Below the pieces are notes generated by a model. It had not been told where the DNA came from, ran no database searches, and saw only the letters and a list, made by a program, of their open reading frames with translations. Shown piece after piece: positions 4,621 to 58,690 of a DNA stretch of 64,000 nucleotides. The DNA comes from Mermis nigrescens (taxonomy: Eukaryota; Nematoda; Enoplea; Mermithida; Mermithidae), in assembly GCA_036768485.1 (NCBI GenBank), contig JAVLUZ010000511.1, positions 2,494,411 through 2,558,410 on the forward strand, read 5' to 3'. Position 1 is the stretch's first letter. Each line of letters begins with the position of its first letter. The translations under genes were made by a program, and so were the position numbers.

Positions 4621-4637
4621 AAATTTACGTAAAATAC

Positions 4638-4884
4638 CTTATCATTCTTGTAGAACATGTCGTATTCTTGAATCATACGACGGCTAGCCGCAGAACCGTG
4701 ATAAACAACGGCATTGAAATCGGACCAATTTTCGAATTCGCGTTGCCAATTAATGATGGTCGAAAGGGGGGCTATGATGAGAAAGGGGCCCCTCAAACCA
4801 CTCATGCGTCTAATCTCCACCAAATAAGTCACCGATTGCACCGTTTTGCCCAAACCCATTTCGTCGGCCAAAATGCAATTTTGT
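4638..4884 (-). CDS. CHD helicase exon with Walker A
   Basis: This exon opens after an ATCGCAG acceptor with one base completing the Arg codon begun in the previous exon, and closes before a GTATTT donor in phase 0. It encodes [20 protein letters not shown] (ATP-binding motif I) followed by [20 protein letters not shown] (motif Ia) and [19 protein letters not shown]. Residue order and spacing match CHD6-9 proteins. The join to both neighbours keeps frame. Confidence 0.95.
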
Positions 4885-23100: not shown

Positions 23101-23115
23101 TTAATTCAATCCTAC

Positions 23116-25143
23116 TTCGTTATTTTCTTAATTTCGCTTGGTGTACTCTTTTTCTTCACGGGCCTCTTTTTCTTCAACTCATCAACCGCTATGACGTCCT
23201 CACTCGCTTCTATCAATTCGATTATTGGCACTATTTCCGTCGATTCTTTTGGGATATCGACCTCAGAAGGCGGTTCATCGACTTTATTATCCAATTCAAG
23301 CGCATTATCCGCGGTTCCCAATTCAAACGCGGTGGGAATTTCAAGTAGTGGTTGTGGCTCCAAATTTGGCAAATAAGCCTGCGGTTCTTCAAAACCATCC
23401 GAAACAGCGGCATCACACAAAATAGTAGCCATTTCAACGTTGCTAATCAAATCGTCCAGCAAGCAATGCACATCCGACGTCAAATTTTCGTAATCGGCGA
23501 TTTGAGCCGATTCGATTTCTACCAAAGTATTGGGCTGCGAGACGGTTGGAACCGGATCCGTATCCGTAAAACCGGAACTAATGCCTCTGATCACCGATTC
23601 AAATATGCTCTCGCTGTACTTTGCGAATTCGCTCGTTCGTTTTGGTGGGGTTCGCTTGGGTCTTTTTGTCGTCGTCTGTGATTGGTCACTTGCAGATGTT
23701 GAGCCAATCAGAGACGCCGGAAAACCCGATACGTCCGTAACGTCCTTTGATCGATTTCTATTCCTTTTTCGCGGTTTTTTATCGCCGATCTGTTGCCCTA
23801 TGGATTTGTTATCGGTTTTACCGTCTTTTCGACCAGAATTTGGTGGTATTGCGCTTATCGCACTAGTACTGCTTCCTACTGTGCCGTGTAAAACCGACTG
23901 AAGCACTGAACTAATGGGCGACACGGCACAAGATCCAGTCCCCAGCTGTAAAGGAGCCTTGGGCAATACAGTCAACGTCGACGAAGCATTAGTTTTGTTG
24001 TCGTAGGGATAGGACGTGCTGACGGATAGCAATGACTGCTGTGGAATTGAAGGAGTACAGGGAGCCAATATTCGAGGCGCCATTGGGGTCGACGCACTGG
24101 ACATACGTGGTACGGGCTCTTGCGGTATAATATTGGGCGTGGAAATGGCCGTATTTTGGTACACTGTTCCGGCCTGCTGTGGTTGCTGGCCCAGGTTCTG
24201 ACTGCCAACAGGCAATTGATACAACGTAATTAATGTGGTAGGCTGGCTATTTGGCTGGATATTGACCTGCACGGCGGGACCTAGATGATCGCTGGGCATC
24301 ACAACTGCCAAGGATGGAGTCCCTTGCTGAACATTGGTGGAAGCTTGTCCGACCATATGATGCAAAGCTGGATGCTGCTGGTAGATATGCTGGGTGCTGG
24401 CCAGATCGCCTTGTCTGCTATAAGCCATGACTGGCTGATTTGTTTGAATGGCGGTCAGGGAGGTAGATTTCGATGTATAATGTGGTGATACTGCGCTGAC
24501 GGGTATTTTCGACGGGAGGCCCTCTTGTACGGGAACATATAGAGACTGCTGCCGAAGGTTAGATCCCGGACCTGTGGGGACAGTAGCACCAGGAATTAGA
24601 TTCAACGCTATGGGATTAGGGCGACCAGCTACCACCTGCTGTTGATCTAAATAGCTTTGCTGATGTTGCTGTGAGGCCAAGAGTGGTACATTCGATCGAG
24701 ACTCTACTGTAGATGCCTGTACAGCTTTTCCAAGAATATACTGAGGCATAAAAGTGCCGGTCTGTTGCTGCTGTTGATTCCAGCCAATTGGCTCCTGATC
24801 AGACGCACCTATGTTGGAATTCCTGGAATATCCGGCCTGTGAATAGGTAATGCCCTTATCCTTCAATGCTTGTACACCCTCGCCCCAATCAGCCGACTGT
24901 ATTGAAGATGTTGGAAATCGATGATGTGGATAAGTTTGCAGCTCAAATGAAGTCCCTTGCGGGGTCATCATACCCTGTTGTTGCTGTGCATAATACTGCT
25001 GCTGCTGAGCTCTATAGTATGCCGAATCGGGTTGGGGTTGATATTGGTACTCACTAAATGATTGCTGCTGACTGGTCTGATAGCCCGATAGCTGTGCTTG
25101 TGCTTGGGCAGCTTGTTGTTGCTGGTAGAATGCCACCCGACTT

Positions 25144-25178
<35 letters not shown>

Positions 25179-25616
25179 AGTCATCATTCCACTCATTTGT
25201 CCACTAGCATATGCAACTGCTGTGGGCCTTGTGCTATCCATGACTCTTTGTTGTTGTGGTTGTGGATTGTAGAAATTCGCCTGTCCTTTGACCACCTGAT
25301 AGCTGTAATTGTTCGACTGTTGCTGCTGTTCATTACTCGATAGTTGTTCGGATCTGATCTGCTGCTGATCAGCCATTTGCAACAACCTTGCTGACGAGTA
25401 CTGCTGTTGTTGCTGCTGCACCTGTGGTGCGTACTGTACTCTGAGGTCGTATTCCGGTTCCTGTTGCAAGGTGTATTGAGATCGGCTGAGAAAACCGCCA
25501 CTATTTGCTGCCTGTTGGCTACTGAATTCCTGATATCTATAATTCTGAGCCATTGGCGCCACACCTCCCCCAATGCTGCCATACTGGGCCACCGCATGTT
25601 GACTCGAACGAGGCCC
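23116..25616 (-). CDS. CHD N-terminal Gln-rich exon (second segment)
   Basis: It encodes over 820 residues. The first third is Gln-rich, with QQQQQQQQQQQ runs from CAG/CTG repeats at about 25,145-25,180. A Pro/Ser/Thr-rich part follows, then a basic stretch (KPRKRNRNRSKD, TTKRPKRTPPKRT) and an acidic C-terminal part ending DELKKKRPVKKKSTP. The donor ACGAA|GTAGGA just before the stop codon joins in phase to the exon at 21,583. Such Gln-rich disordered N-termini occur in kismet-type CHD proteins. The left limit is well supported; the upstream junction is not (see the next segment). Confidence 0.8.
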
Positions 25617-25675
25617 CTGCTGGGCAGCTAAAACTGTTGCGTAAGGGGTGGTCGGTGGCCTAACCCTGCATAAAC

Positions 25676-26266
25676 GGCCGCTGGGTACCTAGGCGCCTGC
25701 TCGGGTCTGATTGCAACAGAGAGCTGCTGATGTTGCTGTTGCTGTGGCACCCGGGTCCTGGAGTTCATTTTTCCCCCGGGCGCAGTCGATTTTGCTTGCT
25801 TCCTTTTTGCTCCTTTCCCAGATGATGACGAACTGGCAGCAGGGACATCCTGGGATATCATCATGCCTTGCTCCTGTTGATTCTGTTGGGCGAACTGATA
25901 CTGTGTGGGACTAGGGTAAAAATCTGGAGTACTGTAACCAGTGGAAGGTCTGACCAAACCACAAACAAGAGGGCCACTTATGTATTGATGCTGCATGGCT
26001 GACATATTTCCATAGGCTGATTGACCGCCATCTAAAGCCCTTCTGAGTTGCTCAACGTTCGGCTGCTGTTGCTGTTGTTGTTGCATGTAAGGTGGTATGG
26101 GAGTTGGTGGGATGAAGGGGTCCAAGGAAGGATCTATGACAGCAGCAGCTGCAGCAGACCCGTTCCCACCAGTTGTGTTGTAATCTGTTAAACTGCTAAC
26201 GTCCAATCCAGCTCCAACAGAATCTAGCAGTTGGGAAAATTGCGGCACATAATCATCGGATTCCAT
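25676..26266 (-). CDS. CHD N-terminal exon with start codon
   Basis: It begins with the ATG at 26,264-26,266 (MESDDYVPQFSQLLDSVG) and is Ala-, Pro- and Gln-rich, with MQQQQQQQQ. It stays open to a stop at 25,628 but must change frame to join the downstream Gln-rich segment. GT/AG pairs that restore frame include 25,675-25,620 (56 nt) and 25,675-25,617 (59 nt), with a weak GTTTAT donor. A 1-bp sequence error is the alternative. The start is chosen because it opens this frame and is followed by plausible CHD N-terminal sequence. Confidence 0.72.
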
Positions 26267-38430: not shown

Positions 38431-41195
38431 GAAACCTGGCTAAATGAATCTATTTCCGACAGTCTATTATGTCCATTAAAAATTATCTTATTCTCCGATC
38501 AGATCGTAAGAATAAGCGGGGAGGTGGGGTTTTAACTTTTACTAAATTTTATCTTTATGCTCAATGCGTTAAAGTTCCTGCTTCTCTGTTTGTGTCTGAT
38601 ACTTTAGTAGTTGAAATTTTAAAAGGTGGAGATGTTATTAGATGTTTGTTAGTTTATAGACCTCCTCAGTATGATTTTGATACTGCACTTCAGATATGTA
38701 ATTTAATTGAATGGGCTACTAATAGTTGTCATCCCGTTATTATACTAGGTGATCTAAATTTGCCTAAAATTGATTGGTTTCATGGTACTTATGTACATTT
38801 AATCCATTAAACGAATTATTTTTTGATTACTTATCAGCTAGTGGTCTGCAACAGTTAATTAAAGAAAATACCCACGATAATACTTTGATTGATGTAGTAT
38901 TTGCTGCATATAACGTTTTTAATGTCCAGGTTCTTCCTCCTTTTTCAACAAGCGACCATAATTCGATTTCTTTTGAAATTTTAAGTAGAACTTCTCAAGA
39001 TAGAGATAAACCTTGCTTAAATTTCAATAAAGCGGACTACGATAGTATAGCAACTTTTTTATCCTCTGTTTCTTGGCCTGACACTTTTTCTACATGCTCA
39101 ACAGTTAATGACATGTATAATGTTTTTTAAGTATATTAAATCCTCTTATTTTTAGTTTTGTACCTACTTTTAGGGCTAAATCAAAACTTAAATACCCTAA
39201 AAGCTTACATAAATTATTTCTTAAAAAACGTTCTCTATGGGATAAGTATAAAAGGTGTAAAACTCCAGGAACTAAAGTTAAATATCGAAATCATTGTAAA
39301 GCTCTATGTAGAACTATTCATAATTATTTCTCTTCTCAAGAAAACAAATTGCTTGAGAATAATGATCCTAAAGCTTTCTATACTTTTGTAAATAATAGGT
39401 TAAAAAGTCGCAATGAAATTCCTCCTCTAACATTTTCTGATAATGATGTTATAACCGATTCATTACGCAAAGCTAACATTTTTAATGATTATTTCGCTTC
39501 TGTGTTTTCTAGTGACATTACTAATGCGAATTTTCTTTTTCAGAAGCGCTGTGATTTTTTGCTTTCTGACGTTATTTTTAGTGAGGATCGCATATTGGAA
39601 GCCATTAACCATCTAAATAAGTCAGTTACAGTAGGCCCTGATGGCATATGTAATCTTTTTGTTAAAAAATTATTGTTTCAAATGATAAAGCCATTAGTTA
39701 GTATTTTCACTGTATCTTTTCTGTCTGGAAATATTCCCGAGCTTTGGAGCATGGCACATGTTATTCCAATTTTAAAAAAGGGGGATCCAGCATTAGTGGA
39801 TAATTACAGGCCCGTTTCTCTTTGTTGTTCTATTGCCAAAATTATGGAAAGAATTATTAATAGTCAATTGTTAGACTTTCTTAAGGTTAATAAACTAATA
39901 TCTCCTTTTCAATTTGGTTTTCAAAAGAATAAATCTTGTGAAACACAGTTGTTAAAATGTAAGTTTTCTTGGATTCAGTCCTTAGCTAAAAATGAAACTG
40001 TCGATATAATATACTTAGATTTTTCAAAAGCATTTGATAAAGTAAATATTGAAAAACTTCTTATTAAAATAAACGGATATGGAATAAACGGTAATTTGTA
40101 TGCATGGTTAAAGGCCTATTTGTTTAATCGTTCCCAATGTGTTCGCGTTAATCAGTCTTTTTCAGATTATGTGCCTGTTACCAGCGGTGTCGTCTAAGTG
40201 AGTGTCCTTGGACCTACGCTCTTTTTGATTTTTATAAATGATATATGTGATAATATTTATAGTACGGTTTATATGTTCGCTGATGATATCAAAATTTTCA
40301 ATATTAGTCATAATTGTAAATTATTACAGTCTGATTTAGATAAGATTATTGACTGGGCAATTACATGGGATTTACCTATTTCTCGAACCAAAAGTCAAGT
40401 TCTATATTTGGGTAATAGTAATCAAAAAGTTGTTCATAGACTAAATGGGGAAATTATTTCTAGTGATCTGTTTGTCCGTGATTTAGGAGTTTTGATTCCT
40501 AGAAATTTAAAATTTAAGGAACATTATAATTCTTTGATTAAAAAAGCTTTTTCTAGATGTATTTTAATACGCAAATCATTTTTTTCGCGTGATAAAGGTA
40601 ACCTTGTCAAAGCTTATAGCTGTTATGTTAGACCTTTATTAGAGTACTGTTGCAGTGTATGGAACCCCTCTTATCTTAGGGATATAGATCGACTGGAAGC
40701 TGTTCAACGTAGATTCACTAAATATATTTTTGGTTATAATAATATTCTTTCTTACGAGGATCGTTTAACACAACTTAAATTGTGCAGACTTGAATTAAGA
40801 CGCTTGCAGATTTGTCTGTGTTTGATGTATCAAATTATTTGTCATAAATCATGTTTGGAAGCTGATGATTTTTTTGTATTTAATCATAATATTACCCGTA
40901 GCATTAATAGATTTAAATTAGATATACCTATTGTACATTCTAATTTAGAAAAGTTTGATTTCTTTTACAAATACATCGCAGTTTGGAACGATCTTCCTGA
41001 CTTCATTGTTTCTTCCCCTAACCTAAATATATTTAAATCTAGATTAGCAAACTTTGATTTATCTAGATATCTTGTGGGGCGCACGTAAAACTTGTCATTC
41101 CATTGACTCGCATGTCCCTTTCCTAATTCGTAATTGCGTTTATTGTATATCTGTCATTTTGTATTTTAACATTTGGTAATAATAATAAAATTTTC
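38431..41195 (+). pseudogene. CR1/Jockey-type LINE, decayed ORF2 (endonuclease and reverse transcriptase)
   Basis: Endonuclease-like motifs come first (ETWLNESISD, RCLLVYRPPQYD, IILGDLNLPKIDW, then STSDHNSISFEI). RT motifs follow: VGPDGICNLFVKK, YRPVSLCCSIAKIMERIIN, LDFSKAFDKVN and YMFADDIKIF with the catalytic pair. The C-terminus has RPLLEYCCSVWNP and WNDLPDFIVSSPN. Frameshifts are seen near 38,470, 38,790 and 39,130-39,340, and a TAA at 40,195-40,197 where the family has the Gln of PQGSVLGP. It cannot make a full protein. A short TAATAATAATAAAA tail is at about 41,177. It lies in a 3.6-kb insertion that splits the right arm of the large inverted repeat. Confidence 0.9.
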
Positions 41196-45370: not shown

Positions 45371-45574
45371 CCGTTCTATAGTCTGTTCCATTTCATCGAA
45401 CCCTTTTTCCCTAACTTTCAAATTCGAATTGGAATACGCTTATAACTGTAACTCGTCCAATTCCGCTTACGGATTCGCTATTCGTCTAGTGTGGTCGGCT
45501 GCGCTATTCTGTTCGCTCGATTTGTGATAATGGCCGATCAACGAGCTGATCTGCGTCCCATCCTGCCCTTACTA

Positions 45575-45578
45575 CAAC
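45575..45578. other. Target-site duplication CAAC (left)
   Basis: CAAC precedes the left LTR and follows the right LTR (54,792-54,795). The undisturbed foldback arm at about 55,538 gives the empty site with one copy. Confidence 0.9.
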
Positions 45579-45791
45579 TGTAACAAACGTGCATATATGT
45601 AAGATGCACCTAAAGCAATAACCATTTATTCTTTGTGTTCTGTACTTATATAGTAATAAATGTAGCACATGAAATACAGTATATCCGGTTTCTAATGCCG
45701 GTCATAGTACTTAATATAGTTTACCATTATATAGTGTTTATCATTAAATCTATCTATTATATCATTAATGAAACTGCTTGCTGCCGTTACA
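45579..45791 (-). repeat. 3' LTR of the Gypsy element
   Basis: 213 bp, TGTAACAAACG...GCCGTTACA on the plus strand. It appears identical to the 5' LTR. Directly inside is the polypurine tract (rc of TTCCTCCACCAC, 45,792-45,803). Confidence 0.95.
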
Positions 45792-45945
45792 TTCCTCCAC
45801 CACAAAATTGAAAGTCCCGGTAAATAAAATGTGATTCCTGCTGAGGTCCTGGAATTGTGGGTTATCTCGAATGTTACATATGGGTTGTTGTAAAGTTGTG
45901 TTAACTATAAAGAATTACAATAGCAATCCTATACTTGTTGGTCGG

Positions 45946-48900
45946 CTACAGTTCAACGCTGTCATCACTTAACGATTCTGCTTCATTGACCAGTTGTTGA
46001 CGTGGTCCATGACATAGCTTTAACTTATCTAAATGAACCATCCGTGTTCTTTTTGGTTCATTGATGTCTTGAATTGTAGCGTTTGGTGGGCGAACCTGTG
46101 TGATTTTGTATGGCCCAAACCAACGAGTATCAAATTTGCCAGGGGATCGATCATTTTTCAAAAGAACTAACGAACCGATTTTGAAATGATCAATTTCCTT
46201 TACTTTCGCTCCTTTTGGTCGGTCATAGTTCACTTTTTGATGTTGTTGAGCCTGGCTAATGGCAGCAGCTGCTGCATCTCTGGCGATTCTGAGTTCTTGA
46301 TCAACTCGTCCGACAAATTCAGTTTTAGGGGCATCTCCAGCGGCCAAGGCTTGTTCCAGAGGCAATTTGGGATGGCGTCCATAAACTAGATAATAGGGGC
46401 TGAATGTTGTACTCTCATGCCGACTTGTATTGCATGCAAATGTGACATATGGCAAGTAGAGGTCCCATTGATTGGGCTGTCGTTCAATATACATGGTCAG
46501 CATAATTTCCAGCGTACGATTGAACCGCTCAACAAGCCCATTGGTCTGTGGATGGTAGGCTGTTGAGTTAATATGTCTAATATTGCATAATCGACAAATT
46601 TCCTGGAAAATTTCAGCCATGAATGCCATCCCTCGATCAGACTGGATTTCCTTTGGCGCCCCAAATCTACTGATAATCCGCACCATCAATGCTTGGGCAA
46701 TCGTTTGAGATCGTAAATTTGGTATGGCAATTGTCTCGGCCCATTTTGTAAAAGAGTCAATGAAAATGAGAATATGACAATTGCCTCGGCCTGTGATGGT
46801 AATGGGTCCCATGGTATCCATCACCCATCTTTCAAATGTTTGCCGGACTGGAATTGGGTGCATTGGTTCAGCTGGTAGGCGCTTGTTTGCTGGCTTTCTT
46901 CGTTGACAAGCCAGACAATTTTGACAGTAATCCAAGACATCTGTTCGTAATCTTGGCCAATGGAATCGTTCACGAATTTTCTCCATTGTGCGTTTATACC
47001 CCAAATGCCCAGCTAGCGGATCATCATGGAATGATTGCAGTACCTCTTTAACACAAAACTTAGGCACAGCAATCCTTGGTGGCTTGTTCGCATCAGATTG
47101 ATACTTGAGGATACAATTATCCAATATGTAATTCTCAGCTGCTTGTACCAACTGAGCGTTGAGTCCAAAACTCATTTGATTAGCCTGTAATAAATGATAT
47201 ATGGGTCCTAAAAACAAATCTCGTTTTTGATGTCGAGCCCAATTATGTGACAAATTGTCCACCACATTAATTTGTGTGGAAGTTGGTTCTTCCGCTTTAC
47301 ACTGGATTATGGGTAGTCTGGATAAGGCATCTGCATTGCCATTTTCTTTCCCTTTTCGAAAAATAATGTCAATGTCATATTCTTGTAATGAAATGACCCA
47401 TCTGACTAATCTTGACGATGCTCCATCATTGATCTTCAACAATCGAATTGGTGCATGGTCGGTGTAAAGTTCAAATTTTCGACCATAAATGTATGGGCGA
47501 AATTGCTTGATGGCCCATACAATCGCCAATGCTTCCTTCTCAATTGTGGAGTAATTTTTCTCGGCCTTATTGAGCGTTCTTGATACAAATGCAATTGGTT
47601 GCTCAATTTCTTTCTTCCTTTGGGCTAAAACTCCACCTATTCCGGTGCCACTGGCATCAGTTTGTACCATGAACGGTAACTTAAAATCCGGAAATGCCAA
47701 TGTTGTTGCTCGTTTGAGCTCTCCTTTAATATGCCTAAAATTATCCTCACATTCTTTGGTCCATTCAAATGCTTCATCTTTGTGTAACAATTTGTTTAAA
47801 GCAGATGTTTTTGAAGCAAAGTTTTTTACAAAACGTCTGTAATAATTAGCTAACCCTAGAAAGCTTCTTAGAGTTGCAATATTATTTGGTTGTGGCATAC
47901 TGTCAATTGCTTGTACCTTGGCTGGATTAACGCGTAAACCATTACGATCTTTTATATGTCCTAAGTAACTAACCTCGGGTAAGGCAAATTCACACTTTTT
48001 TATTTTGAGCGTCAATCCTGCAGTTGTTAAACGGTTGAAAACCTCTTCTAAGTCTTTCAGGTGTGTTGCCATGTCGGTTCCACAAACAAGGACATCATCG
48101 AGGTATACAAAACACTTGTGCCAATTCAAATCTCGTAGCACACGTTCCATTGTCCTCTGGAAAGTAGCTGGCCCATTTGATAGTCCAAATGGGAGGACAT
48201 TAAATTCATATAGGCCCAGGAAGCTATTGAAGGCCGTCTTTGGTTTATCTTTTTCAAATACTTCAATTTGATGGTATCCCTGTTCTAGGTCTAGTGTTGT
48301 AAAGATGGTAGACCCATCAAGTAGTCCAAAAATGTCGTCAATCCTTGGTAACGGGTAGGCATCTCTTGTTGTAATCTCATTTAGTTTACGGTAATCTACA
48401 CAAAATCGTTTTGTGCCATCTTTTTTATCTGCCAGCACAATTGGTGAACTCCATGGGCTCTGGGAGGGTCGTATAATACCATCCCGTAACATGCGATCAA
48501 TATGATCAGACACAATCTTACGTTTAGCGAATGGTAAGTGATAAGGTGGTTGTGATATTGGACGAAAATCCTTTGTGTCTATCCCATGTTTGACAATATT
48601 CGTTCGACCAAGTGTCCTGCCTATGCCAAATACTTGACGATTTTTGATTAAAAATTTTGTCAGATCATTTCTTTGATCTGTTGATACAATGTGGGACAAT
48701 TTTTCCTCAATCAACTGCATAAATTTGACGTTATCATCCACATTGTTGGTTGGAATCTCTGGAGCCATTGCTGACATTACAGTAGCTATTCTTGTCCCTT
48801 TGTAAAGTCGTATTGGCTGTTCTGTGGCATTTACTACTGGTATACAATTTAGATGGACATCTTCATTCAACTTTAAACGACAGCTAGGTACATATAAAGG

Positions 48901-49023
48901 TCTGTACCTGAATGTTGGATGAGCTTTAATGTCAATCAATTGATTATTATTAATCTGATTGGTGTAAAGTACACCAATTAAATTAATTGAGGCTGGTTGG
49001 ACATTGGTGGTTTTCCTAGCCAC
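45946..49023 (-). CDS. Gypsy pol: reverse transcriptase, RNase H and integrase
   Basis: 1,025 residues from the first ATG of this frame, though the frame is open upstream to about 49,150 (basic, RGKKSRAKRR) and is probably entered by frameshifting, not by that ATG. RT: FCVDYRKLN (about 207), LPFGLSNGPATFQ (about 277) and YLDD (307-310). RNase H: TDASGTGIGG (about 455), YSTIEKEALA, and YTDHAPIRLL. Integrase: H666, H673, C703 and C706 zinc site, then D736, D796 and E832 (SDRG, NGLVERFNR). The C-terminus carries a basic GPYKITQV domain. No internal stop is seen. Confidence 0.95.
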   Translation of the reverse strand: MARKTTNVQPASINLIGVLYTNQINNNQLIDIKAHPTFRYRPLYVPSCRLKLNEDVHLNCIPVVNATEQPIRLYKGTRIATVMSAMAPEIPTNNVDDNVKFMQLIEEKLSHIVSTDQRNDLTKFLIKNRQVFGIGRTLGRTNIVKHGIDTKDFRPISQPPYHLPFAKRKIVSDHIDRMLRDGIIRPSQSPWSSPIVLADKKDGTKRFCVDYRKLNEITTRDAYPLPRIDDIFGLLDGSTIFTTLDLEQGYHQIEVFEKDKPKTAFNSFLGLYEFNVLPFGLSNGPATFQRTMERVLRDLNWHKCFVYLDDVLVCGTDMATHLKDLEEVFNRLTTAGLTLKIKKCEFALPEVSYLGHIKDRNGLRVNPAKVQAIDSMPQPNNIATLRSFLGLANYYRRFVKNFASKTSALNKLLHKDEAFEWTKECEDNFRHIKGELKRATTLAFPDFKLPFMVQTDASGTGIGGVLAQRKKEIEQPIAFVSRTLNKAEKNYSTIEKEALAIVWAIKQFRPYIYGRKFELYTDHAPIRLLKINDGASSRLVRWVISLQEYDIDIIFRKGKENGNADALSRLPIIQCKAEEPTSTQINVVDNLSHNWARHQKRDLFLGPIYHLLQANQMSFGLNAQLVQAAENYILDNCILKYQSDANKPPRIAVPKFCVKEVLQSFHDDPLAGHLGYKRTMEKIRERFHWPRLRTDVLDYCQNCLACQRRKPANKRLPAEPMHPIPVRQTFERWVMDTMGPITITGRGNCHILIFIDSFTKWAETIAIPNLRSQTIAQALMVRIISRFGAPKEIQSDRGMAFMAEIFQEICRLCNIRHINSTAYHPQTNGLVERFNRTLEIMLTMYIERQPNQWDLYLPYVTFACNTSRHESTTFSPYYLVYGRHPKLPLEQALAAGDAPKTEFVGRVDQELRIARDAAAAAISQAQQHQKVNYDRPKGAKVKEIDHFKIGSLVLLKNDRSPGKFDTRWFGPYKITQVRPPNATIQDINEPKRTRMVHLDKLKLCHGPRQQLVNEAESLSDDSVEL

Positions 49024-49514
49024 AGCCTCAGTGTACTTGGTAACAAATGATTTAGATTTAGGTCTTCGATTTGATTCATTTGACCCTGGGGTGCTAGGGC
49101 GACGCTTAGCTCGACTTTTTTTACCTCTTGCATGTCTGGTAAAGTGTCATCAATATGTCTTCTATGGCTAGATGTTGGATAAAATTGTAGATTTTCTAGG
49201 TTCAATGGTTCGTCATCTACTTGAACCATAACAGCACCAGTAGTTGTTATGACACTGCCATCATCATCCAAGTGTACTTGTCTCAGTATTCGTTGAACCT
49301 TCTTGGACAGACGAAGTTTACGAACATGCTTTTCGCCTCTCCAATAATTTAAGCGTCTTCCAGCTGTAATGTTGTCTAGCAATGGAATTTTACTTTTATT
49401 GAAGGAACAATAATGTTGTTTAAAGTCAACTGTGCATGTGTTACTATCTGACATGCTTCTTATAGCATCCCAGCCTAAAGACAACAGGATATGGTGAATT
49501 TTTAGATACCACAA
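48978..49514 (-). CDS. Gypsy protease C-terminus and linker in the +1 frame
   Basis: This frame picks up LGWDAIRSM, the usual GxDxL-like end of a retropepsin, right where the protease frame above runs into unrelated sequence. It continues into an acidic linker (QVHLDDDGSVITTTG) and then runs out at 48,978 while the RT frame is already open. Changes of frame are therefore needed at both ends. The candidate sites are TTTAGGC at 49,473-49,479 (+1) and seven A residues at 49,116-49,122 (-1). Confidence 0.7.
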   Translation of the reverse strand: MWYLKIHHILLSLGWDAIRSMSDSNTCTVDFKQHYCSFNKSKIPLLDNITAGRRLNYWRGEKHVRKLRLSKKVQRILRQVHLDDDGSVITTTGAVMVQVDDEPLNLENLQFYPTSSHRRHIDDTLPDMQEVKKVELSVALAPQGQMNQIEDLNLNHLLPSTLRLWLGKPPMSNQPQLI

Positions 49515-50103
49515 AGTTTATTACTTTTATCTTGCCATCAATGACTACATATTCATCCACTCGACCTAAGGCAGGTAATGCATGACCAGTAACTCCAATA
49601 GGCTGATGGTCATCTAAAGACTCCAATTCTGTTCTTGTACCACGTTTTTGATCTAGCTCTCTCAGGACATCTGAATCAAGCAGTGAAAAAGTGGCCCCTG
49701 TGTCAATTAATGCTAGGTAGATTCGATTAGGGTTGTCTTCAAATTGTAACTCCATTACTGGTTGCATATCATTATAAGGACCAAAAGAAATTGGACCCAT
49801 AATTTCATTTCTGATAACTAGGATTTGATGTCGTTGTAGACGATTTCGAGTGGTTGCTCGTTCAGCTGGATTTGGTGTATATTGAGCTAATCTATAGTGT
49901 TCATCATTTTGTCCAGTTGCTTGTCTCCTGCCCCGTTGTCTGAATGGGCAAATTTGAACACAGCAGCGACAAATGTATACAAATGAACCACATAACCACT
50001 CACAACATAGGCAAAGGCAACCATAGCGAGCACAAAAATAGGACACAACAATTATGAGTGCTATGATTATGATCCATACAAGTGCATTGGATATTGATTG
50101 CAT
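49444..50103 (-). CDS. Envelope-type transmembrane anchor fused to aspartic protease
   Basis: The N-terminus SNALVWIIIIALIIVVSYF is a clear membrane-spanning helix, followed by a Cys-rich tail (CLCLCCEWLCGSFVYICRCC) and a basic stop-transfer region. At about residues 128-143 comes IYLALIDTGATFSLLD, the retropepsin active site, then the flap region ending FVVSKNSPYPVV. The frame is the same as that of the gag-envelope ORF and is open back to the TGA at 50,155-50,157. Read-through would attach the anchor to the ectodomain. The ATG at 50,101-50,103 could also start it independently. Confidence 0.85.
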   Translation of the reverse strand: MQSISNALVWIIIIALIIVVSYFCARYGCLCLCCEWLCGSFVYICRCCVQICPFRQRGRRQATGQNDEHYRLAQYTPNPAERATTRNRLQRHQILVIRNEIMGPISFGPYNDMQPVMELQFEDNPNRIYLALIDTGATFSLLDSDVLRELDQKRGTRTELESLDDHQPIGVTGHALPALGRVDEYVVIDGKIKVINFVVSKNSPYPVVFRLGCYKKHVR

Positions 50104-50154
50104 CCATCCACCTGTGAGAAACGAAAGAAAATGTCCTGATCCTTGGGCTAAGCC

Positions 50155-50157
50155 TCA
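50155..50157 (-). promoter_or_regulatory. In-frame UGA between ectodomain and membrane anchor
   Basis: TGA is followed by G and then by an open, glycine- and hydrophobic-rich stretch in the same frame, leading to the transmembrane helix. It is the only stop between the start of gag and the protease. Programmed read-through, a separate spliced or reinitiated product, or a recent null mutation are the options. Confidence 0.6.
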
Positions 50158-53109
50158 CACTGATCGTCGTAGTTGGTAAATTGATAGGCCATTGATGTCC
50201 TTTATTCCATCACCAATGTCTTCGATGGTTTCTCTAAATAGTTTAGGGTCTACATGGAACTCTGATGTAAAGTTCACTAGATTGTGTAATTGTTGTCTTA
50301 GACGATGTATTTCTAATAAATTGACTGCCAATGATGTTTGGAAGGGTGGCGAGTGATACTGATGATCATGAAACAATGAGGGCGCATCAAGAATTATAGG
50401 TGTGGCTCCTCCTTCTAATGCTGTTGTGAAATTATGGAGCAATGGTTTCACGTCCACTGGTCCTCGCAAACTTTGCCAGGTGTGAGTCAAATTATCATAA
50501 CAAACACCTGTAGGGGCTTCAAAACATGGAATTTTAGGTGAAGATGTTACTAAATCATTTGAGCCCGATAGGATAAAGTGCATGCTTTCATTTACAACTG
50601 CTGGCATCAGAGCATAGCAGTCTGATCCGACTTTGTGGTTCCAAAAGACAAAATCAATTTCCATTGGTGTGCAAGGCCACACTAAAAGAGACTCACCAGC
50701 CATCCTTGCTGCTATATCAGTACGTTTAAGCCACAATTGAGCAGCAATCGTCGCATCTAAGCGTAAAAATTGGCGCACTATTTGCAGCTGCATGTCAGCC
50801 AGGGAACATATCTGCATCCATAGCTGGCGAAATCGCAGTACTTCCCATTGTCGCAGATTAGCCTCCAGGTATTGTAAACGACTGTTGAGGTCAGAATCTG
50901 GTTGGGGCTGCTTTTCATTTATTAATGGGTCTTTATTAATTGTTGCTTTGTTTATTACATCACGTCTGGTTTTAACTTTACTAGAATCGGCCAGTCGAAA
51001 GGATTCTGCATCAAAAAATTGCAGGATAAAGCCTTGATCCATCAATGTCAGATATTGAGGTAGACAACTATGATGGGGCGCCGGTAATTGCCTCATTCGA
51101 GTAAATGCCTGTTGGATGTCTTCGGCGATATAATACTCTCCAGATCGTTGAATGGCGAGATCATGATTGTCCGTCACATACGGACATGGCGCCTTGAGAT
51201 CATTAGGGTTCCAAACAACGACACTAGAATCATCCAATTCACATCCAGTGGCATCAGCATGACACATTGAGACATCACCTAGATTTGATGTTATAAGGCG
51301 GCCATCATAGGTTGCGACTTTTCCAAGCTGAACAATAGCATTTTCAGCAATGACACAAACATCCTTGCAACAATACTCATAGCGGATATCCAGGCTATTG
51401 TTGCTTCGCCAGACGTTACTTTTAACATGCCAAAGCTGGGCCCCTCGATAGAATTCAGTTAAGACCATTCGTTTACATCGATGTTGAGATAATACTACAG
51501 TTTCTTCCTGGTCTCGAGTTATGCCTTTAGAACCAAATACGCCCATGTTTGTGCAAATAGTCCGTTTCATTGCTGTGCATCGATAAGCATGGACTGAACT
51601 TGGCTTTAAATTAGGCACCCAAATTCTTGCTGCTAAAAATCTGATGGGTTGTACTCGTGGCATTTTGCAGATAATGTTTTTGGGTATCTCATAGTGTGAA
51701 CCAGTTATATGATGTTCACAATATTGGTAACCCTCAATAGTGGCTTGACTAAGATTAGCAAAAAGTGTCAGAAAAGTGATCACAAACATCACAAATTTTG
51801 ATGTAAACGGTGATGTAGGTAAAATACGTACCATTTGATTTGACGGTGTTAAAGGTTCAACCAGGTCTTGAGTTTCTGGCTTAGTCGTTGTAGTCAAATC
51901 ATTCATGATGGTACAAATGATGTCACTAGGAACGTTTTCATCTGAGTCACTAGCTGAATCATTCACCATTTTATACTGGACACGTTTATCATCATTTACA
52001 CCTTGACTACGTTGTGTGCTTGTTGATGGATGGTCATTTGTGTCCATTGTTGTGTGTAAATTACTTTGATTCATGCGGCGATTTACCACTGTATAAGTCC
52101 TACCTCTGACTGTTGGCCTAGCTGCTGGTTGGCGTCTCAGTGCTGGACGTCTTGGTGTAGAAATGCCTGAATTATATAAATTGGAATGTTGTGATCCCCT
52201 TGTGATGTGAGAAGATTGCCTTAATTGATGTCGAGCTATATGTCCAAATGGATTGTTGGAATTAGCCCTTTGTTGTGGTCTATTTTGGGAGTTTTGCCAT
52301 GACCGACAGTCACGGGCTAAATGTCCTAGGCGACCACATCTAAAACAGCGTGTTGCACTCAGGCGAGATGTAATTGGTGGTCTCCTGCTTTGAAGACCAC
52401 GCCCACGACCACGGATGACAGTATATAGTAATTGATTATTATTTCGTGGCATAACATCCCCTGAGCTTTGTGCGCGTTCTTCAATATTATGTTGTTGTTG
52501 CTCTTCATGGCGGGCATACATTTCAGCCTGTGAAAATGATGTTGGTTTACGGTCTGATACTTTTCGCCAGAGCTGATCTTGCAGTCCTTTCACAAAAATA
52601 TGGCGCATAATGTCATCTAACATGGCTGGATTGGCATCAGGGTAAGCCAGAAGTGCTAAATTCTGTATCTCAATGGCATACTTATAAACTGGCTCTCTAG
52701 GTTGCTGACGACGGTCATGAAATTGCTGTTGTTTGACCTCACGGTTGTTTAATGGTACAAACCTTTCTCGTAGTCGCTCCACTAATTGGTCAAAATCCAT
52801 CCTACTCTTTACATCCAATGGAATTGTATTATAGGCTTGCTCTGCAAAGCCACGAAAATATGTGGGGACTAGCAACCGCTTCTTTTTATCATCCCAGCCA
52901 TTTGCCTGTGCCATCCTGTTGAATCTATCAACCCACAGATCAAAATTATCATCTGATCGCCCATAAAATATTTCTCCAACACCAACATTGGCCACTGTAG
53001 ATGCTGGTTGTGGACCATCGGTGGCACGTAAGGTAAGCTGTGCCAGTTGGTCCTGCTGTCGAGCGATGGTATCCTGCAGCTGCTCAATCTGATTCCTTAT
53101 TCGCTGCAT
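50155..53109 (-). CDS. Gag fused to envelope-like ectodomain
   Basis: 984 residues. 1-40 are coiled-coil-like (Gln-rich). About 45-210 form a Retrotrans_gag-type domain (FDLWVDRFNRMA, YFRGFAEQAYNTI). 230-250 are basic. 255-268 form one CCHC knuckle (CFRCGRLGHLARDC). 290-425 are a basic then Ser/Thr/Asp-rich linker. At 426 a Met begins a signal-peptide-like stretch (KFVMFVITFLTLFANLSQA). About 457-984 is a Cys-rich ectodomain with at least five N-x-S/T sequons (such as NNSL, NLT, NFT), a dibasic KTRR near 737 and predicted heptad-type helices. It ends at the TGA. The function as an envelope is inferred from topology; its fold class is unknown. Confidence 0.85.
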   Translation of the reverse strand: MQRIRNQIEQLQDTIARQQDQLAQLTLRATDGPQPASTVANVGVGEIFYGRSDDNFDLWVDRFNRMAQANGWDDKKKRLLVPTYFRGFAEQAYNTIPLDVKSRMDFDQLVERLRERFVPLNNREVKQQQFHDRRQQPREPVYKYAIEIQNLALLAYPDANPAMLDDIMRHIFVKGLQDQLWRKVSDRKPTSFSQAEMYARHEEQQQHNIEERAQSSGDVMPRNNNQLLYTVIRGRGRGLQSRRPPITSRLSATRCFRCGRLGHLARDCRSWQNSQNRPQQRANSNNPFGHIARHQLRQSSHITRGSQHSNLYNSGISTPRRPALRRQPAARPTVRGRTYTVVNRRMNQSNLHTTMDTNDHPSTSTQRSQGVNDDKRVQYKMVNDSASDSDENVPSDIICTIMNDLTTTTKPETQDLVEPLTPSNQMVRILPTSPFTSKFVMFVITFLTLFANLSQATIEGYQYCEHHITGSHYEIPKNIICKMPRVQPIRFLAARIWVPNLKPSSVHAYRCTAMKRTICTNMGVFGSKGITRDQEETVVLSQHRCKRMVLTEFYRGAQLWHVKSNVWRSNNSLDIRYEYCCKDVCVIAENAIVQLGKVATYDGRLITSNLGDVSMCHADATGCELDDSSVVVWNPNDLKAPCPYVTDNHDLAIQRSGEYYIAEDIQQAFTRMRQLPAPHHSCLPQYLTLMDQGFILQFFDAESFRLADSSKVKTRRDVINKATINKDPLINEKQPQPDSDLNSRLQYLEANLRQWEVLRFRQLWMQICSLADMQLQIVRQFLRLDATIAAQLWLKRTDIAARMAGESLLVWPCTPMEIDFVFWNHKVGSDCYALMPAVVNESMHFILSGSNDLVTSSPKIPCFEAPTGVCYDNLTHTWQSLRGPVDVKPLLHNFTTALEGGATPIILDAPSLFHDHQYHSPPFQTSLAVNLLEIHRLRQQLHNLVNFTSEFHVDPKLFRETIEDIGDGIKDINGLSIYQLRRSV

Positions 53110-54557
53110 TGCTGTTATTCCAATTTCCCAATTTGCCGTTTACACTCGCGTTTCGTTTACACACCTTGTTGTGTCCGACCTACTTTTGAGGACTCCTACG
53201 TCGAGAAATCGAGATTTGTCTACACTCACCTTCCTACAACTGACCCTCTCTTCCCCTCGACAACGGAGTTCAGAGGTTGTAGAAATTGTAGATCAGTTAG
53301 TGTAAACTCACCAAGATTCCAGGTAGAAATCAACAATGACGTAGTAGGTAAGAAAACAACTGACAGGTTCGGCTTTTGGTATACCGAGAATAAACGCGAA
53401 ATATCGACTATAAATGTCGATAACTTGGTAAATCGAAATAAATCCGAGTTGATAGTGATTGTTTGTATGTAGAATTTCGATAAAATCGTACAAAAGCACT
53501 AATAATAATTTTATCAGTTATATACTGATCTTTAGAAAAATAATCAATATATTTTGAATCGAAATTGTAAGAACAATTTATAAATTCCGATCACTGACAA
53601 GTGCTGTTAGACACAAGTGCGGCATATTAGAATGTATAATACCATTTAACATTAACAATGCATTGTTTTGTGTGCTGCATCTCTGTTAATCGGGTCCTCG
53701 GGCTATCTTGTAATGTCAATTTATATATGTATTTTTGTCGAGCGCATATACGAATTATATCAATGTTAACACCAAAAGTGTTCAATCGTGGCATTCGAAA
53801 GCCAAAATTCGTATAATTAGAGCAGCAAGTCGTCGATTTAATTATTCGCATTCTCTTCACATATAAAAGTTAAGTACAAAACGCAAACAAAGTTTTTGTA
53901 CTTTTTCGCATGAAAAACTTAATCATTTGCATCTGATAAATCGAAGCTTCAACCAACGTTATAGTTCGTTCACTTGCAAGTATTTTTCGGGCTCAACAAT
54001 CTCAAAAATTGGAGCGAATTCCATCATGCGAACTCCGTTTCCCATATACATTCATTTATCGTAATTATGTAGCTACATACAATACTTTTATGTGCCAAAA
54101 ATTTCTCGATTAGAAATTTTGTTCACAACAATTGAAACGGATCCTAATCAACGTTCCATAAACATAATTTCCGTAATTTAATATTCCTCGTCTACTATTT
54201 TACAATGACTCGACGACCAACATTGTAAATGACTTATGTGCCCCATAAAAGTTCCACACGATTTAGACGAGGTTTCAAACTGTGCCTGATAAACGTTCCG
54301 AATTCCAATAATATTTTTGGGCGCCCATTCACGTTTATCAAAATTTCCGGGAAAAATAAAGTTTATTTGTTCCACTAATTTAAATCCAGGGCACTAATGC
54401 GACAAATTCTTGGGAAACGGTGCGAATAATACACTGGCCGGGGGTTATCGTTTGGCAAATCCAAAAACGTTCATTTCAACAATTTTAACCGGCCGCGCTC
54501 GACTATGGGTGGGCATAATATCAGAAATTTATAAAATAAAATTTCTGTTGAATATCA
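53110..54557. other. 5' untranslated leader of the Gypsy element
   Basis: About 1.45 kb between the primer site and the gag ATG, unusually long. No ORF with known similarity is seen. Splice donors may lie here, but none is marked out. Confidence 0.5.
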
Positions 54558-54575
54558 ACGCAGATTGCCCCCCAA
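54558..54575 (-). other. Primer-binding site of the Gypsy element
   Basis: Read on the minus strand, three bases after the 5' LTR comes TGGGGGGCAATCTGCG, which starts with the TGG that pairs with the CCA end of a tRNA. Which tRNA is not determined. Confidence 0.65.
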
Positions 54576-54578
54576 ATA

Positions 54579-54791
54579 TGTAACAAACGTGCATATATGT
54601 AAGATGCACCTAAAGCAATAACCATTTATTCTTTGTGTTCTGTACTTATATAGTAATAAATGTAGCACATGAAATACAGTATATCCGGTTTCTAATGCCG
54701 GTCATAGTACTTAATATAGTTTACCATTATATAGTGTTTATCATTAAATCTATCTATTATATCATTAATGAAACTGCTTGCTGCCGTTACA
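54579..54791 (-). repeat. 5' LTR of the Gypsy element
   Basis: 213 bp, apparently identical to the 3' LTR. It should carry the promoter; CTATATAA-like words are present on both strands but no start site can be chosen. Confidence 0.95.
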
Positions 54792-55984
54792 CAACCCTAT
54801 CAGCAAATTTAAGAAAAAGGATTGCGAGATACTGAATTCTGGTCGGCTACCCGGCACAAATAGTCTGAATTACGGGGGAGGGTGATGGGAAAAATCGCCA
54901 AAAATAGCACCGAAAATTCAATTCTGGTGGTCTGTTGATTTCGGCAGGGGTCATCCTCATTTGGGGGAGGAGGTGAGGTAATCCGCCGGAATCTGGTTGT
55001 CCAGACTTCCGCACCCATCTGTGCTGCCAGGACGTGGTGTCATAAGACCCAGAAAACTGCGATTAACCAACGTCCTGCCCAAAGCAACACACTCCGTAGG
55101 GAGAAAACCTAATTTTGTTGAAAAACGTGAAAAATTTGACCATCCAGCATTTCTACTTAACTGCTACATAAGTTAGCCTGATTTTTTTCCATGTTTTTGA
55201 CGTCTTACTTTTTGAAAATTCGATCATCAGCCTGGAGCAGAACTATGTACGTTTGCCAGAATTAGGACTCCATGAAATTCGGCAAATTTTCACCATCGTC
55301 CTGGCAGCACATATGGGCGCAAAAGTCTGGACAACCAGATTCCGGCGGATCACCTCCTCCCCCAAATGAAGATGACCCCTGCCGAAAATCAACAGACCAC
55401 CAGAATTGAATTTTCAGTGTCATTTTTGGTGATTTTTTTCCATTACCCTCCCCCGTAATTTAGACTATTTGTGCCTCGTAGCCGACCAGAATTCAGTATC
55501 TCGCAATCCTTTTTCTTAAATTTGCTGATAGGGTTGTAGTACGGACAGGATGGGACGCAGATCAGCTCGTTAATAGGCTATTATCACGAATCGAGCGAAC
55601 TGAATAGCGCAGCCGACCACACTAGACGAATAGCGGATCCGTAAGCGGAATTGGACGAGTTACAGTAATAAGCGTATTCCAATTCGAATTTGAAAGTTGG
55701 GGAAAAAGGTTTGATGAAACGGAACAGACTATAGTTCATGGGAACGCGAGAGTTAATAGGGCAACATATCTATAAGCATGCAGTGCGAAGCGAGTCAACT
55801 ATTAGATTTTCGATGCACTTCAAAATCTTATAAAAACGCTACGAAAATGTATGCAGTTGATAATTATTATCTCTGATGGTCTCGTCAACCTTTAGAATTG
55901 CGATAGACTTGCTCTTTGAAAAGCAAGGTCAAACCGTAGCGCAATGAAGTCTTTGCAAGCTTTACTATAATAAGTGAGAATACG

Positions 55985-57639: not shown

Positions 57640-58250
57640 AAGCATTTATTGCAACGTCCAGGAACAAGCACAAATACAAAAAAGGGATGTAATTCGATAA
57701 AAAAGACGACGATATTTTAAATGACACACATGACAACATTCGAGTATGTACGATTATAGCATTAGCAATAGGGACATGCAGTCACGAAGGTGACAACTTA
57801 CGCACACCCCTTTAAAATAATAGACAGATCGGTAGTATTGAGTTTGCTTTAAAAATTTTTAGGCTAGGTGAATTTACAACATCATTTGGAAGCGAATTCC
57901 ACAGATTTACATATCTTTGACTGAAATCACACTTGAGAATATCGGAACGAGCCACAGGAACAATAAGCTTAAAATTATTGGCAGAGCGAGTACAATTGTC
58001 ATTGAAAGCGAACAACTCGTCACGAAGAATATGAGACTGTCCAGTAATAATTTTAAAATACAAACACAAAGCAAAACGAATACGGCATAATTTGAGGCGT
58101 TCTAAAGACTGTTTAATTAAACAATCGTTATAAGACAAACCGCTGTTAAAGCCAAAAATACTTCGCGTACACTTGCGCTGAACTCTTTCGATACGATCAA
58201 TATCTCGAATAAGATAATACTTAAACACATTGTTATTAATGTGTTTAAGC
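57640..58250 (-). pseudogene. CR1/Jockey-type LINE, 5'-truncated 3' end
   Basis: Minus-strand reading gives RDIDRIERVQRKCTRSIFGF, RLKLCRIRFALCLYF, NNFKLIVPVARSD and LWNSLPNDVVNSPSLKIFK, parallel to the C-terminus of the LINE at 38,431-41,195. The stop at 57,812 is followed by about 170 bp of 3' sequence. The break at 58,250 falls inside the 165-bp repeat, which resumes on the other side, so the fragment inserted there. Confidence 0.82.
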
Positions 58251-58289
58251 CGCGCCGATTGCAGCATTTTTATCAAAGGCATAAGTAAA

Positions 58290-58690
58290 AGGTGGCGCTG
58301 GCGCTGGCCCTGGCGCACTGGGTAAAAGATAGAGCTGGCCTTGGTTCTGGCCCTCGCCAACTGGGTAAAAGATGGCGCTGGCGCTGGCGTACATGGGTAA
58401 AGGGTGGCACTGGCGATGACGCTTGCCTTGGCCTTCGCCAACTGGGTAAAAGGTTGCGCTGGTGCTGGCCTTGTCCCTGGCCGTTCCCAACTGGATAACA
58501 GCTGGCGCTGCCGCTCGGCTTGGCCTTGGCCATGGCCAATTGAGTAGGCGCTGGCCTTGGCCCTCTGGCCATCGCCAACTGTTTAAAAGGTGGCGCTGGC
58601 GCTGGCCTTGACCATTGCCAACTGGATAAAAGGTAGCACTGGCGTTTGGCTTGGCCATGGCCAAGTGGGTGAAAGGTAGCGCCGGTCATT
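58290..58690. repeat. GC-rich minisatellite, unit about 55-60 bp
   Basis: GGCGCTGGCGCTGGCC, CTTGGCCATGGCCAA-like and CAACTGGGTAAAAGGT words recur about seven to eight times. It stands out from the AT-rich surroundings. Open frames on both strands here are products of the repeat. Confidence 0.85.

What the first reader, a model, noticed from the sequence alone, without database searches (positions are those of the whole stretch)
45579..54791. LTR retroelement with an envelope-like module between gag and protease
Seen directly: one reading frame runs gag, CCHC knuckle, signal-like segment and a Cys-rich ectodomain with several N-glycosylation sequons. After one TGA, the same frame gives a transmembrane helix and then the protease. 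Known: in errantiviruses, Cer/Tas elements and vertebrate retroviruses env lies 3' of pol. Inferred: a surface glycoprotein was captured into the gag-pro junction, so Gag, glycoprotein and protease could be made as one polyprotein. Element integrity and identical LTRs argue that this order works. The V.WNP....CPY pattern in the ectodomain hints at a mononegavirus/chuvirus-like glycoprotein, but that is weak.
Basis: partly seen in the sequence, partly recalled or inferred. Interest (0 to 1): 0.88.

Follow-up and report, generated by a model that had tools for sequence, protein, structure and literature searches.

The report
Retrovirus-like element with mid-polyprotein envelope
A family of retrovirus-like jumping genes in a nematode genome carries a virus-type membrane-fusion glycoprotein in the middle of its polyprotein, between the capsid and protease parts, instead of at the end as in the related cases we read about.

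Summary
The window element (45579-54791, minus strand) has identical 213-bp TG..CA LTRs, a CAAC target duplication, and the order gag, CCHC, signal-like segment, Cys-rich ectodomain, TM, protease, RT-RNase H-integrase. The ectodomain matches Pfam Monjiviricetes_fusion (7.6e-10; 8 of 8 alignment members, window included) and, below significance, herpesvirus gB: a mononegavirus/chuvirus-type, probably class III, fusion glycoprotein.

The TGA is not a lineage feature: absent in 7 of 7 near-identical copies read, though one decayed relative also has a stop there. The order is no chimera. In 15 further copies chosen by env, it lies between gag and protease wherever those neighbours are detectable. 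In 6 stretches chosen by RT it adjoins TM-protease in 6 and gag in 5. Seven lineages (41-63% identical) share 16 cysteines. One copy with identical 163-bp LTRs has a single 2298-aa frame from gag to integrase.

Env capture is known; nematode Belpaoviridae (Atlas virus) even make one Gag-Pol-Env polyprotein, with Env last. I found no report of Env between Gag and protease. A membrane-threaded polyprotein with an internal signal is inferred. AlphaFold failed (pLDDT 33), so the fold is unproven. Inferred host: Mermis nigrescens.

The parts
54579..54791 (-). 5' LTR (coding orientation), 213 bp, TG..CA
45579..45791 (-). 3' LTR, identical to the 5' LTR
45575..45578 (.). target-site duplication CAAC, left
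54792..54795 (.). target-site duplication CAAC, right
54560..54574 (-). putative primer-binding site; core GGGGCAATCTGC shared with the D-lineage copy
   Evidence: tRNA not identified
45792..45805 (-). purine-rich tract before the 3' LTR
51742..53109 (-). gag, ending in the hydrophobic signal-like segment
   Evidence: PF03732; ORF
52303..52347 (-). CCHC zinc knuckle
51742..51801 (-). internal signal-like hydrophobic segment
   Evidence: present in 5 of 5 lineages scored
50158..51741 (-). env ectodomain, 528 aa, 17 Cys
   Evidence: 16 of the Cys conserved in 7 lineages
50962..50973 (-). basic furin-like site (KTRR) before a variable linker and the long helix
   Evidence: [RK]x[RK]R at this place in 4 of 5 lineages, about 20 residues on in F; by eye present in I, absent in G; the motif also occurs elsewhere in A, B and D
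50515..50889 (-). stretch matching Monjiviricetes_fusion PF24664
   Evidence: 7.6e-10
50155..50157 (-). in-frame TGA, not a lineage feature
   Evidence: absent in 7 of 7 near copies read; a stop at the same place in decayed L021
50029..50085 (-). transmembrane helix, followed by a Cys-rich tail
49504..49716 (-). retropepsin-like protease with DTGA
   Evidence: PF13650 E 0.0084, below cut-off; DTGA
45946..49023 (-). pol: RT, RNase H, integrase
   Evidence: PF00078, PF17917, PF17921, PF00665

Best explanation
This is one slightly decayed copy of a lineage of Ty3/Gypsy-type LTR elements in which a mononegavirus/chuvirus-type fusion glycoprotein is built into the polyprotein between the nucleocapsid knuckle and the protease. 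Shown: the order; open gag-env-TM-protease frames in several lineages; a single gag-to-integrase frame in one copy with identical LTRs; purifying selection on env; hydrophobic segments on both sides of env. Inferred: the full-length RNA is translated as one chain. Gag stays in the cytosol. The internal signal segment threads Env into the ER and signal peptidase cuts it. The TM helix stops transfer, so protease and Pol lie back in the cytosol. The element's protease and a furin-like enzyme then separate the parts. Each Gag would thus be made joined to one Env at the membrane, much as capsid and envelope proteins are made in flavivirus polyproteins (recalled comparison). The product would be an enveloped particle able to pass between cells.
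For: Near copies lack the stop in 7 of 7 read, and 5 of 7 stay open from the gag part through the protease. Further copies, selected by env match: gag next to env in 14 of 15 and env next to TM-protease in 14 of 15; each exception lacks a match to that neighbour. Of 6 stretches chosen by RT match, env-TM-protease adjacency is seen in 6 and gag next to env in 5. One 2298-aa frame, 163-bp LTRs at 100%, TATG duplication. 16 Cys columns conserved in 7 lineages; pN 0.21-0.29 against saturated pS 0.75-0.82 in 10 pairs. PF24664 in 8 of 8 alignment members, window and a near-identical copy included. Hydrophobic segments before and after env in 5 of 5 lineages. A metagenome protein carries, in one frame, an N-terminal stretch that reads like a gag tail (by eye; no Pfam domain), a signal segment and the env N-terminus (P0004).
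Against: No RNA or protein data. Pol lies in another frame than gag-env-protease in lineages A and B. A strong splice donor lies 120 nt before the gag ATG in A, and B has a fair acceptor 13 nt before env. AlphaFold gave pLDDT 33. The gB similarity is not significant in the PDB search (E 0.28 or worse); Pfam gB matches at 0.0099-0.044 are all below its cut-off. A stop at the TGA place recurs in one decayed relative.
Confidence: 0.72

Rival explanations
1. Env is made from a spliced subgenomic RNA, and a second splice (or none) gives Gag-Pro-Pol. The shared frame is then a by-product of its position.
For: Strong donor 120 nt upstream of the gag ATG in lineage A. B has four acceptors upstream of env, one only 13 nt before it, and one 856 nt after it; F has a donor and two acceptors inside gag and one acceptor 192 nt after env. 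A, B, D and I have a methionine 23-31 residues before the mature Env, and G one at 41, which could start a separate Env. Cer1, a nematode element, makes a spliced product whose first exons share the gag frame (PMC10309623, passages).
Against: No donor or acceptor above threshold recurs at the same place in the 4 lineages scanned, and D shows none; in A acceptors were scanned over 914 nt upstream only. In C and F the only methionines in the 50 residues before Env lie inside the hydrophobic segment, and P0004 has none between its first residue and the signal segment. Frames stay open across both env borders in A, B, D, F, G and I.
Confidence: 0.2
2. A chimeric insertion or dead passenger: env fell into the gag-protease junction and has no function.
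For: The window copy has a stop in env and a decayed relative has one at the same place. Lineages C and E and some D and F copies are broken.
Against: Same order in at least 7 lineages, 16 conserved Cys and strong purifying selection. Against the window lineage, env of B, C, D and F is 54-62% identical and the gag N-part 51-56%.
Confidence: 0.03
3. The extracellular domain no longer fuses membranes. It serves as a membrane anchor or receptor-binding part that sends Gag and Pol to a cell compartment.
For: No fold model; the Pfam match covers only about 125 of 528 residues. The basic cleavage-like site is missing in lineage G.
Against: The match to viral fusion glycoproteins is seen in all 8 alignment members and in L044 and L046, and the 16 cysteines are kept in 7 lineages.
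Confidence: 0.12

Closest known systems
Atlas virus and related nematode Belpaoviridae (PMC9094657, passages read)
   Same: Nematode LTR element, identical LTRs, one polyprotein without stops or introns that includes a viral-type Env
   Different: There the order is Gag-Pol-Env with phlebovirus-like class II GN-GC at the C-terminus and a BEL/Pao RT with YVDN. Here Env is internal, of mononegavirus/chuvirus type, and RT is Gypsy-type with YLDD.
Anakin, mosquito Pao element with chuvirus glycoprotein (PMC7642597, passages)
   Same: Glycoprotein of the negative-strand RNA virus type captured by an LTR retroelement
   Different: BEL/Pao Pol. The place of its env was not stated in the passages I read. 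The same group later reported no clear capture by Gypsy or Copia elements (PMC10084718, passages).
Errantivirus (gypsy of Drosophila)
   Same: Ty3/Gypsy-type Pol plus a captured Env
   Different: Env 3' of pol, from a spliced RNA, baculovirus F type (PMC12440569 passages, for the source; the rest recalled)
Lokiretroviruses (PMC9040795, passages)
   Same: Env similar to Mononegavirales fusion glycoproteins
   Different: Dual RNase H; here only one RNase H region was found. Their env place was not read.
MDG1-group retrotransposons with sORF2 (PMC11952523, passages)
   Same: LTR elements with a membrane-fusion-type protein encoded 5' of pol
   Different: sORF2 is a short FAST-like protein in its own reading frame upstream of gag, not a glycoprotein inside the polyprotein.

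Membership tests
Metaviridae (Ty3/Gypsy) | LTRs with TG..CA ends and a short (4 bp) target duplication | tested here: met
   213-bp LTRs, CAAC; D copy TATG; near copy C64 CATA; C190 did not match; the other flanks were cut, masked or unclear
Metaviridae (Ty3/Gypsy) | Pol order protease-RT-RNase H-integrase | tested here: met
   the protease profile alone is below cut-off but DTGA is present
Metaviridae (Ty3/Gypsy) | RT phylogeny within Metaviridae | not tested
   No reference RT set held. YLDD and a GPY-like motif are read in the sequence only; that the Pfam RT/RNase H profiles are Gypsy-typical is recalled.
Errantivirus | env downstream of pol | tested here: not met
   env lies between gag and protease
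Belpaoviridae (Atlas type) | Env at the C-terminus of the polyprotein, YVDN RT, phlebovirus-like Env | tested here: not met
   env internal; YLDD in the window RT; PF24664 match, no phlebovirus glycoprotein match listed
Monjiviricetes-type (class III) fusion glycoprotein | profile match above the curated cut-off | tested here: met
   37.8 bits against 27 in the window; all 8 members match
Monjiviricetes-type (class III) fusion glycoprotein | class III fold | tested here: inconclusive
   AlphaFold pLDDT 33; PDB profile hits are all gB (11 of 11) but E 0.28-0.85
Lokiretrovirus | dual RNase H domain | tested here: not met
   one RNase H region only

The most novel reading that the evidence does not exclude
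A distinct lineage of enveloped Ty3/Gypsy viruses whose whole protein set, Gag-Env-Protease-Pol, is one membrane-threaded polyprotein. Env is internal, every Gag is born attached to a glycoprotein, and assembly happens at the membrane without a separate Env message: a flavivirus-like expression plan evolved in a reverse-transcribing virus. At least seven lineages would have persisted with it.
Probability: 0.6. Interest if true: 0.87.

Novelty: new variant of a known kind. Interest (0 to 1): 0.76.

Why it matters
Capture of env by retrotransposons is the commonly proposed route to retroviruses, and in the env cases whose place was given in the passages I read, env sits after pol. Here the glycoprotein sits inside the polyprotein and has stayed there under selection. 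That makes an assumed rule of genome order testable: how Gag:Env:Pol ratios are set, where particles bud, and whether an internal signal peptide can serve a Gag-led polyprotein. It also extends mononegavirus/chuvirus-type glycoprotein capture to Gypsy-type elements and to a mermithid nematode.

Tried and rejected
Chimera in one copy only: rejected. Stop codon as programmed read-through: disfavoured as a lineage feature. It is absent from 7 of 7 near copies read, from L020 and L022 and from the open frames of B, D, F, G and I; but decayed L021 has a stop there. Structure prediction of the window ectodomain with 3 metagenome relatives failed (pLDDT 33, pTM 0.21), so no fold search was run. Relatives in IMG/VR: none (one scan with two patterns). 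Protein database: the same 3 hits, all JGI, from two searches; a search for longer fused proteins gave none. Rfam: none. Env-less sister elements: none seen in 6 RT-chosen stretches; the RT list had 43 rows, 40 of 233 candidates scored, so this is a small sample. Splice sites: no recurrent site; the scoring tables were my own rough ones. Papers: ten searches used. For gag-env-pol order searches found nothing relevant. The five papers at the top with the phrase 'between gag and pol' use it for recoding, stop codons, trees or a cited title, not for env (passages). The library holds open-licence papers only, so absence there is not proof.
Full report
What is there. On the minus strand, 45579-54791 is an LTR retroelement. 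The two 213-bp LTRs are identical (TG..CA) and CAAC lies on both sides. A purine-rich tract precedes the 3' LTR, and a candidate primer site follows the 5' LTR. It sits inside an inverted-arm (foldback) repeat whose arms continue across the insertion. The 984-aa frame 53109-50155 carries Retrotrans_gag, a CCHC knuckle and the ectodomain. After one TGA the frame goes on into a TM helix, a Cys-rich tail and a protease-like domain. RT, RNase H and integrase follow in another frame.

What the glycoprotein is. Pfam Monjiviricetes_fusion (PF24664) matches the window ectodomain at 7.6e-10 (37.8 bits, cut-off 27), at residues 285-409. All 8 members of an alignment of window, genome copies and metagenome relatives match it; BDV_G also matches 8 of 8, mostly below its cut-off. 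A profile search of the PDB returned 11 sequences up to E 1, all herpesvirus glycoprotein B, over the long helix; with E 0.28-0.85 this is suggestive only. A basic furin-like site precedes a variable linker and that helix: [RK]x[RK]R is there in 4 of 5 lineages and about 20 residues further on in F. By eye I has it and G does not, and the motif occurs elsewhere in A, B and D too, so it is weak evidence. AlphaFold with four sequences failed (pLDDT 33), so class III is an inference from sequence.

Is it one odd copy? No. A DNA search with the env 3' part found 43 matches (40 of 59 candidates scored), 11 of them at 98% or more, counting the window. Of 7 near copies read around the site, 7 lack the TGA; 5 are open through the protease, and 2 (L005, L006) stop inside it. 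Their right flanks show that C761 and C64, and C101 and C69, are pairs of the same insertion. The 7 copies are therefore 5 insertions, and the 9 flank sets stand for at most 7 loci besides the window. Of three more decayed relatives, L020 and L022 have no stop at that place and L021 has one. The stop is thus decay or a minority variant, not a feature of the lineage. The window copy also shows a frame change near the protease end against the near copies.

Other lineages. I grouped the divergent copies as B to F by identity. The 15 further loci read (L009-L023) were chosen by env match, so only the place of env is informative there: gag is next to env in 14 and env next to TM-protease in 14. L017 has no gag match and L023 no protease match; L020-L023 are decayed members of the window's own lineage. 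To avoid choosing by env, I searched with an RT piece and read 6 of the new places, none of them in the env list: env-TM-protease adjacency in 6 of 6, gag match next to env in 5 of 6 (L045 has none; L049 only a short one). Two of these (L044, L046) are open over the whole 3.5-kb stretch from gag to protease. The D-lineage copy on C47 has 163-bp LTRs at 100% identity, TATG on both sides and a single frame of 2298 aa from the gag ATG to a stop after integrase. Broken copies exist in C, D, E and F.

Is env under selection? In 10 pairs of 5 lineages, one locus per lineage, pN is 0.21-0.29 while pS is 0.75-0.82, which is saturation. Loci with frame breaks or stops in the piece (L014, L015, L017, L018) were left out; L009, L011 and L016 were not used because one locus stood for each lineage. 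In seven lineages (A, B, C, D, F, G, I) 16 Cys columns are shared, and 137 of 642 columns are invariant in all; pairwise identities are 0.41-0.63. The window has 17 Cys, one beyond these. RT-RNase H identities among A, B, C, D and F are 0.71-0.78, and C-D is the closest pair in both, as expected if env and pol were inherited together.

How it works. A hydrophobic segment stands just before the mature ectodomain and a strong one 544-564 residues later in 5 of 5 lineages. This fits Gag in the cytosol, Env in the lumen, and protease and Pol back in the cytosol. An internal signal without its own start is favoured by lineages C and F, where the methionines within 50 residues lie inside the hydrophobic segment (C is broken further upstream), and by metagenome protein P0004. 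Against this, A, B, D and I have a methionine 23-31 residues and G one 41 residues before Env. A splice scan found no site recurring in A, B, D and F, but A has a strong donor 120 nt before the gag ATG and B an acceptor 13 nt before env, so an Env message made by splicing is not excluded. In A and B the pol frame differs from gag-env-protease, so a frameshift or another device would be needed there. The comparison with flavivirus polyproteins is recalled.

Host. The contig bearing one copy is 2,429,002 bp long, exactly the N50 given for the Mermis nigrescens assembly (524.2 Mb, 867 scaffolds; PMC10989877, passages). The held genome has 523,963,438 bases in 860 contigs. The host is therefore inferred to be this mermithid nematode.

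Beyond this genome. Three JGI metagenome proteins are 45-55% identical. P0003 and P0004 come from contigs of the same length (6082), perhaps one contig, which I could not check. No relative was found in IMG/VR.

What is known. Atlas virus and relatives in hookworms encode one Gag-Pol-Env polyprotein with Env last (PMC9094657, passages). Anakin joins a Pao element with a chuvirus glycoprotein (PMC7642597, passages), and the same group saw no clear capture by Gypsy or Copia elements (PMC10084718, passages). A bdelloid rotifer LTR clade (TelKA) has a paramyxovirus-like env as ORF3 (PMC5408684, passages). MDG1-group elements carry a short FAST-like fusion protein upstream of gag (PMC11952523, passages), so a fusogen 5' of pol is not unheard of. 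I found no paper with env between gag and protease (searches; passages 97-101). The kind, env capture by an LTR element, is known; the internal place in a Gypsy-type polyprotein is the new variant.

Noticed in passing
45399-45585, 54784-54894, 55434-55712: The element is inserted in a foldback-type repeat with long inverted arms (93% complementary).
   Followed up: partly
39349-41088 (+): Non-LTR-type (by appearance) reverse transcriptase split into two frames by a stop (RVT_1 in both parts).
   Followed up: partly
57812-58441 (-): Frame whose C-terminal part resembles by eye the end of the 40198-41088 reverse-transcriptase frame; no Pfam match.
   Followed up: no
4494-4871 (-): Frame with SNF2-related domain (1e-17), a CHD-type host gene exon by appearance; Gln-rich frames at 23112-26266 (-) have no Pfam match.
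   Followed up: partly
L024/L025 with L034/L035, and L030/L031 with L032/L033: Identical right flanks on different contigs suggest uncollapsed haplotypes, so copy counts overstate insertions.
   Followed up: yes
54560-54574 and L042 after position 2887: Lineages A and D share GGGGCAATCTGC just after the 5' LTR; the priming tRNA was not identified.
   Followed up: partly
L021, codon after the env end: A decayed relative has a stop at the same place as the window copy; whether inherited or a second event was not worked out.
   Followed up: no
G000:C535, C192, C69:1182893, C48 (two places): Five RT matches at 73% over the same span: another amplified lineage; the C535 copy is open from gag to protease in the stretch read (L044).
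   Followed up: partly
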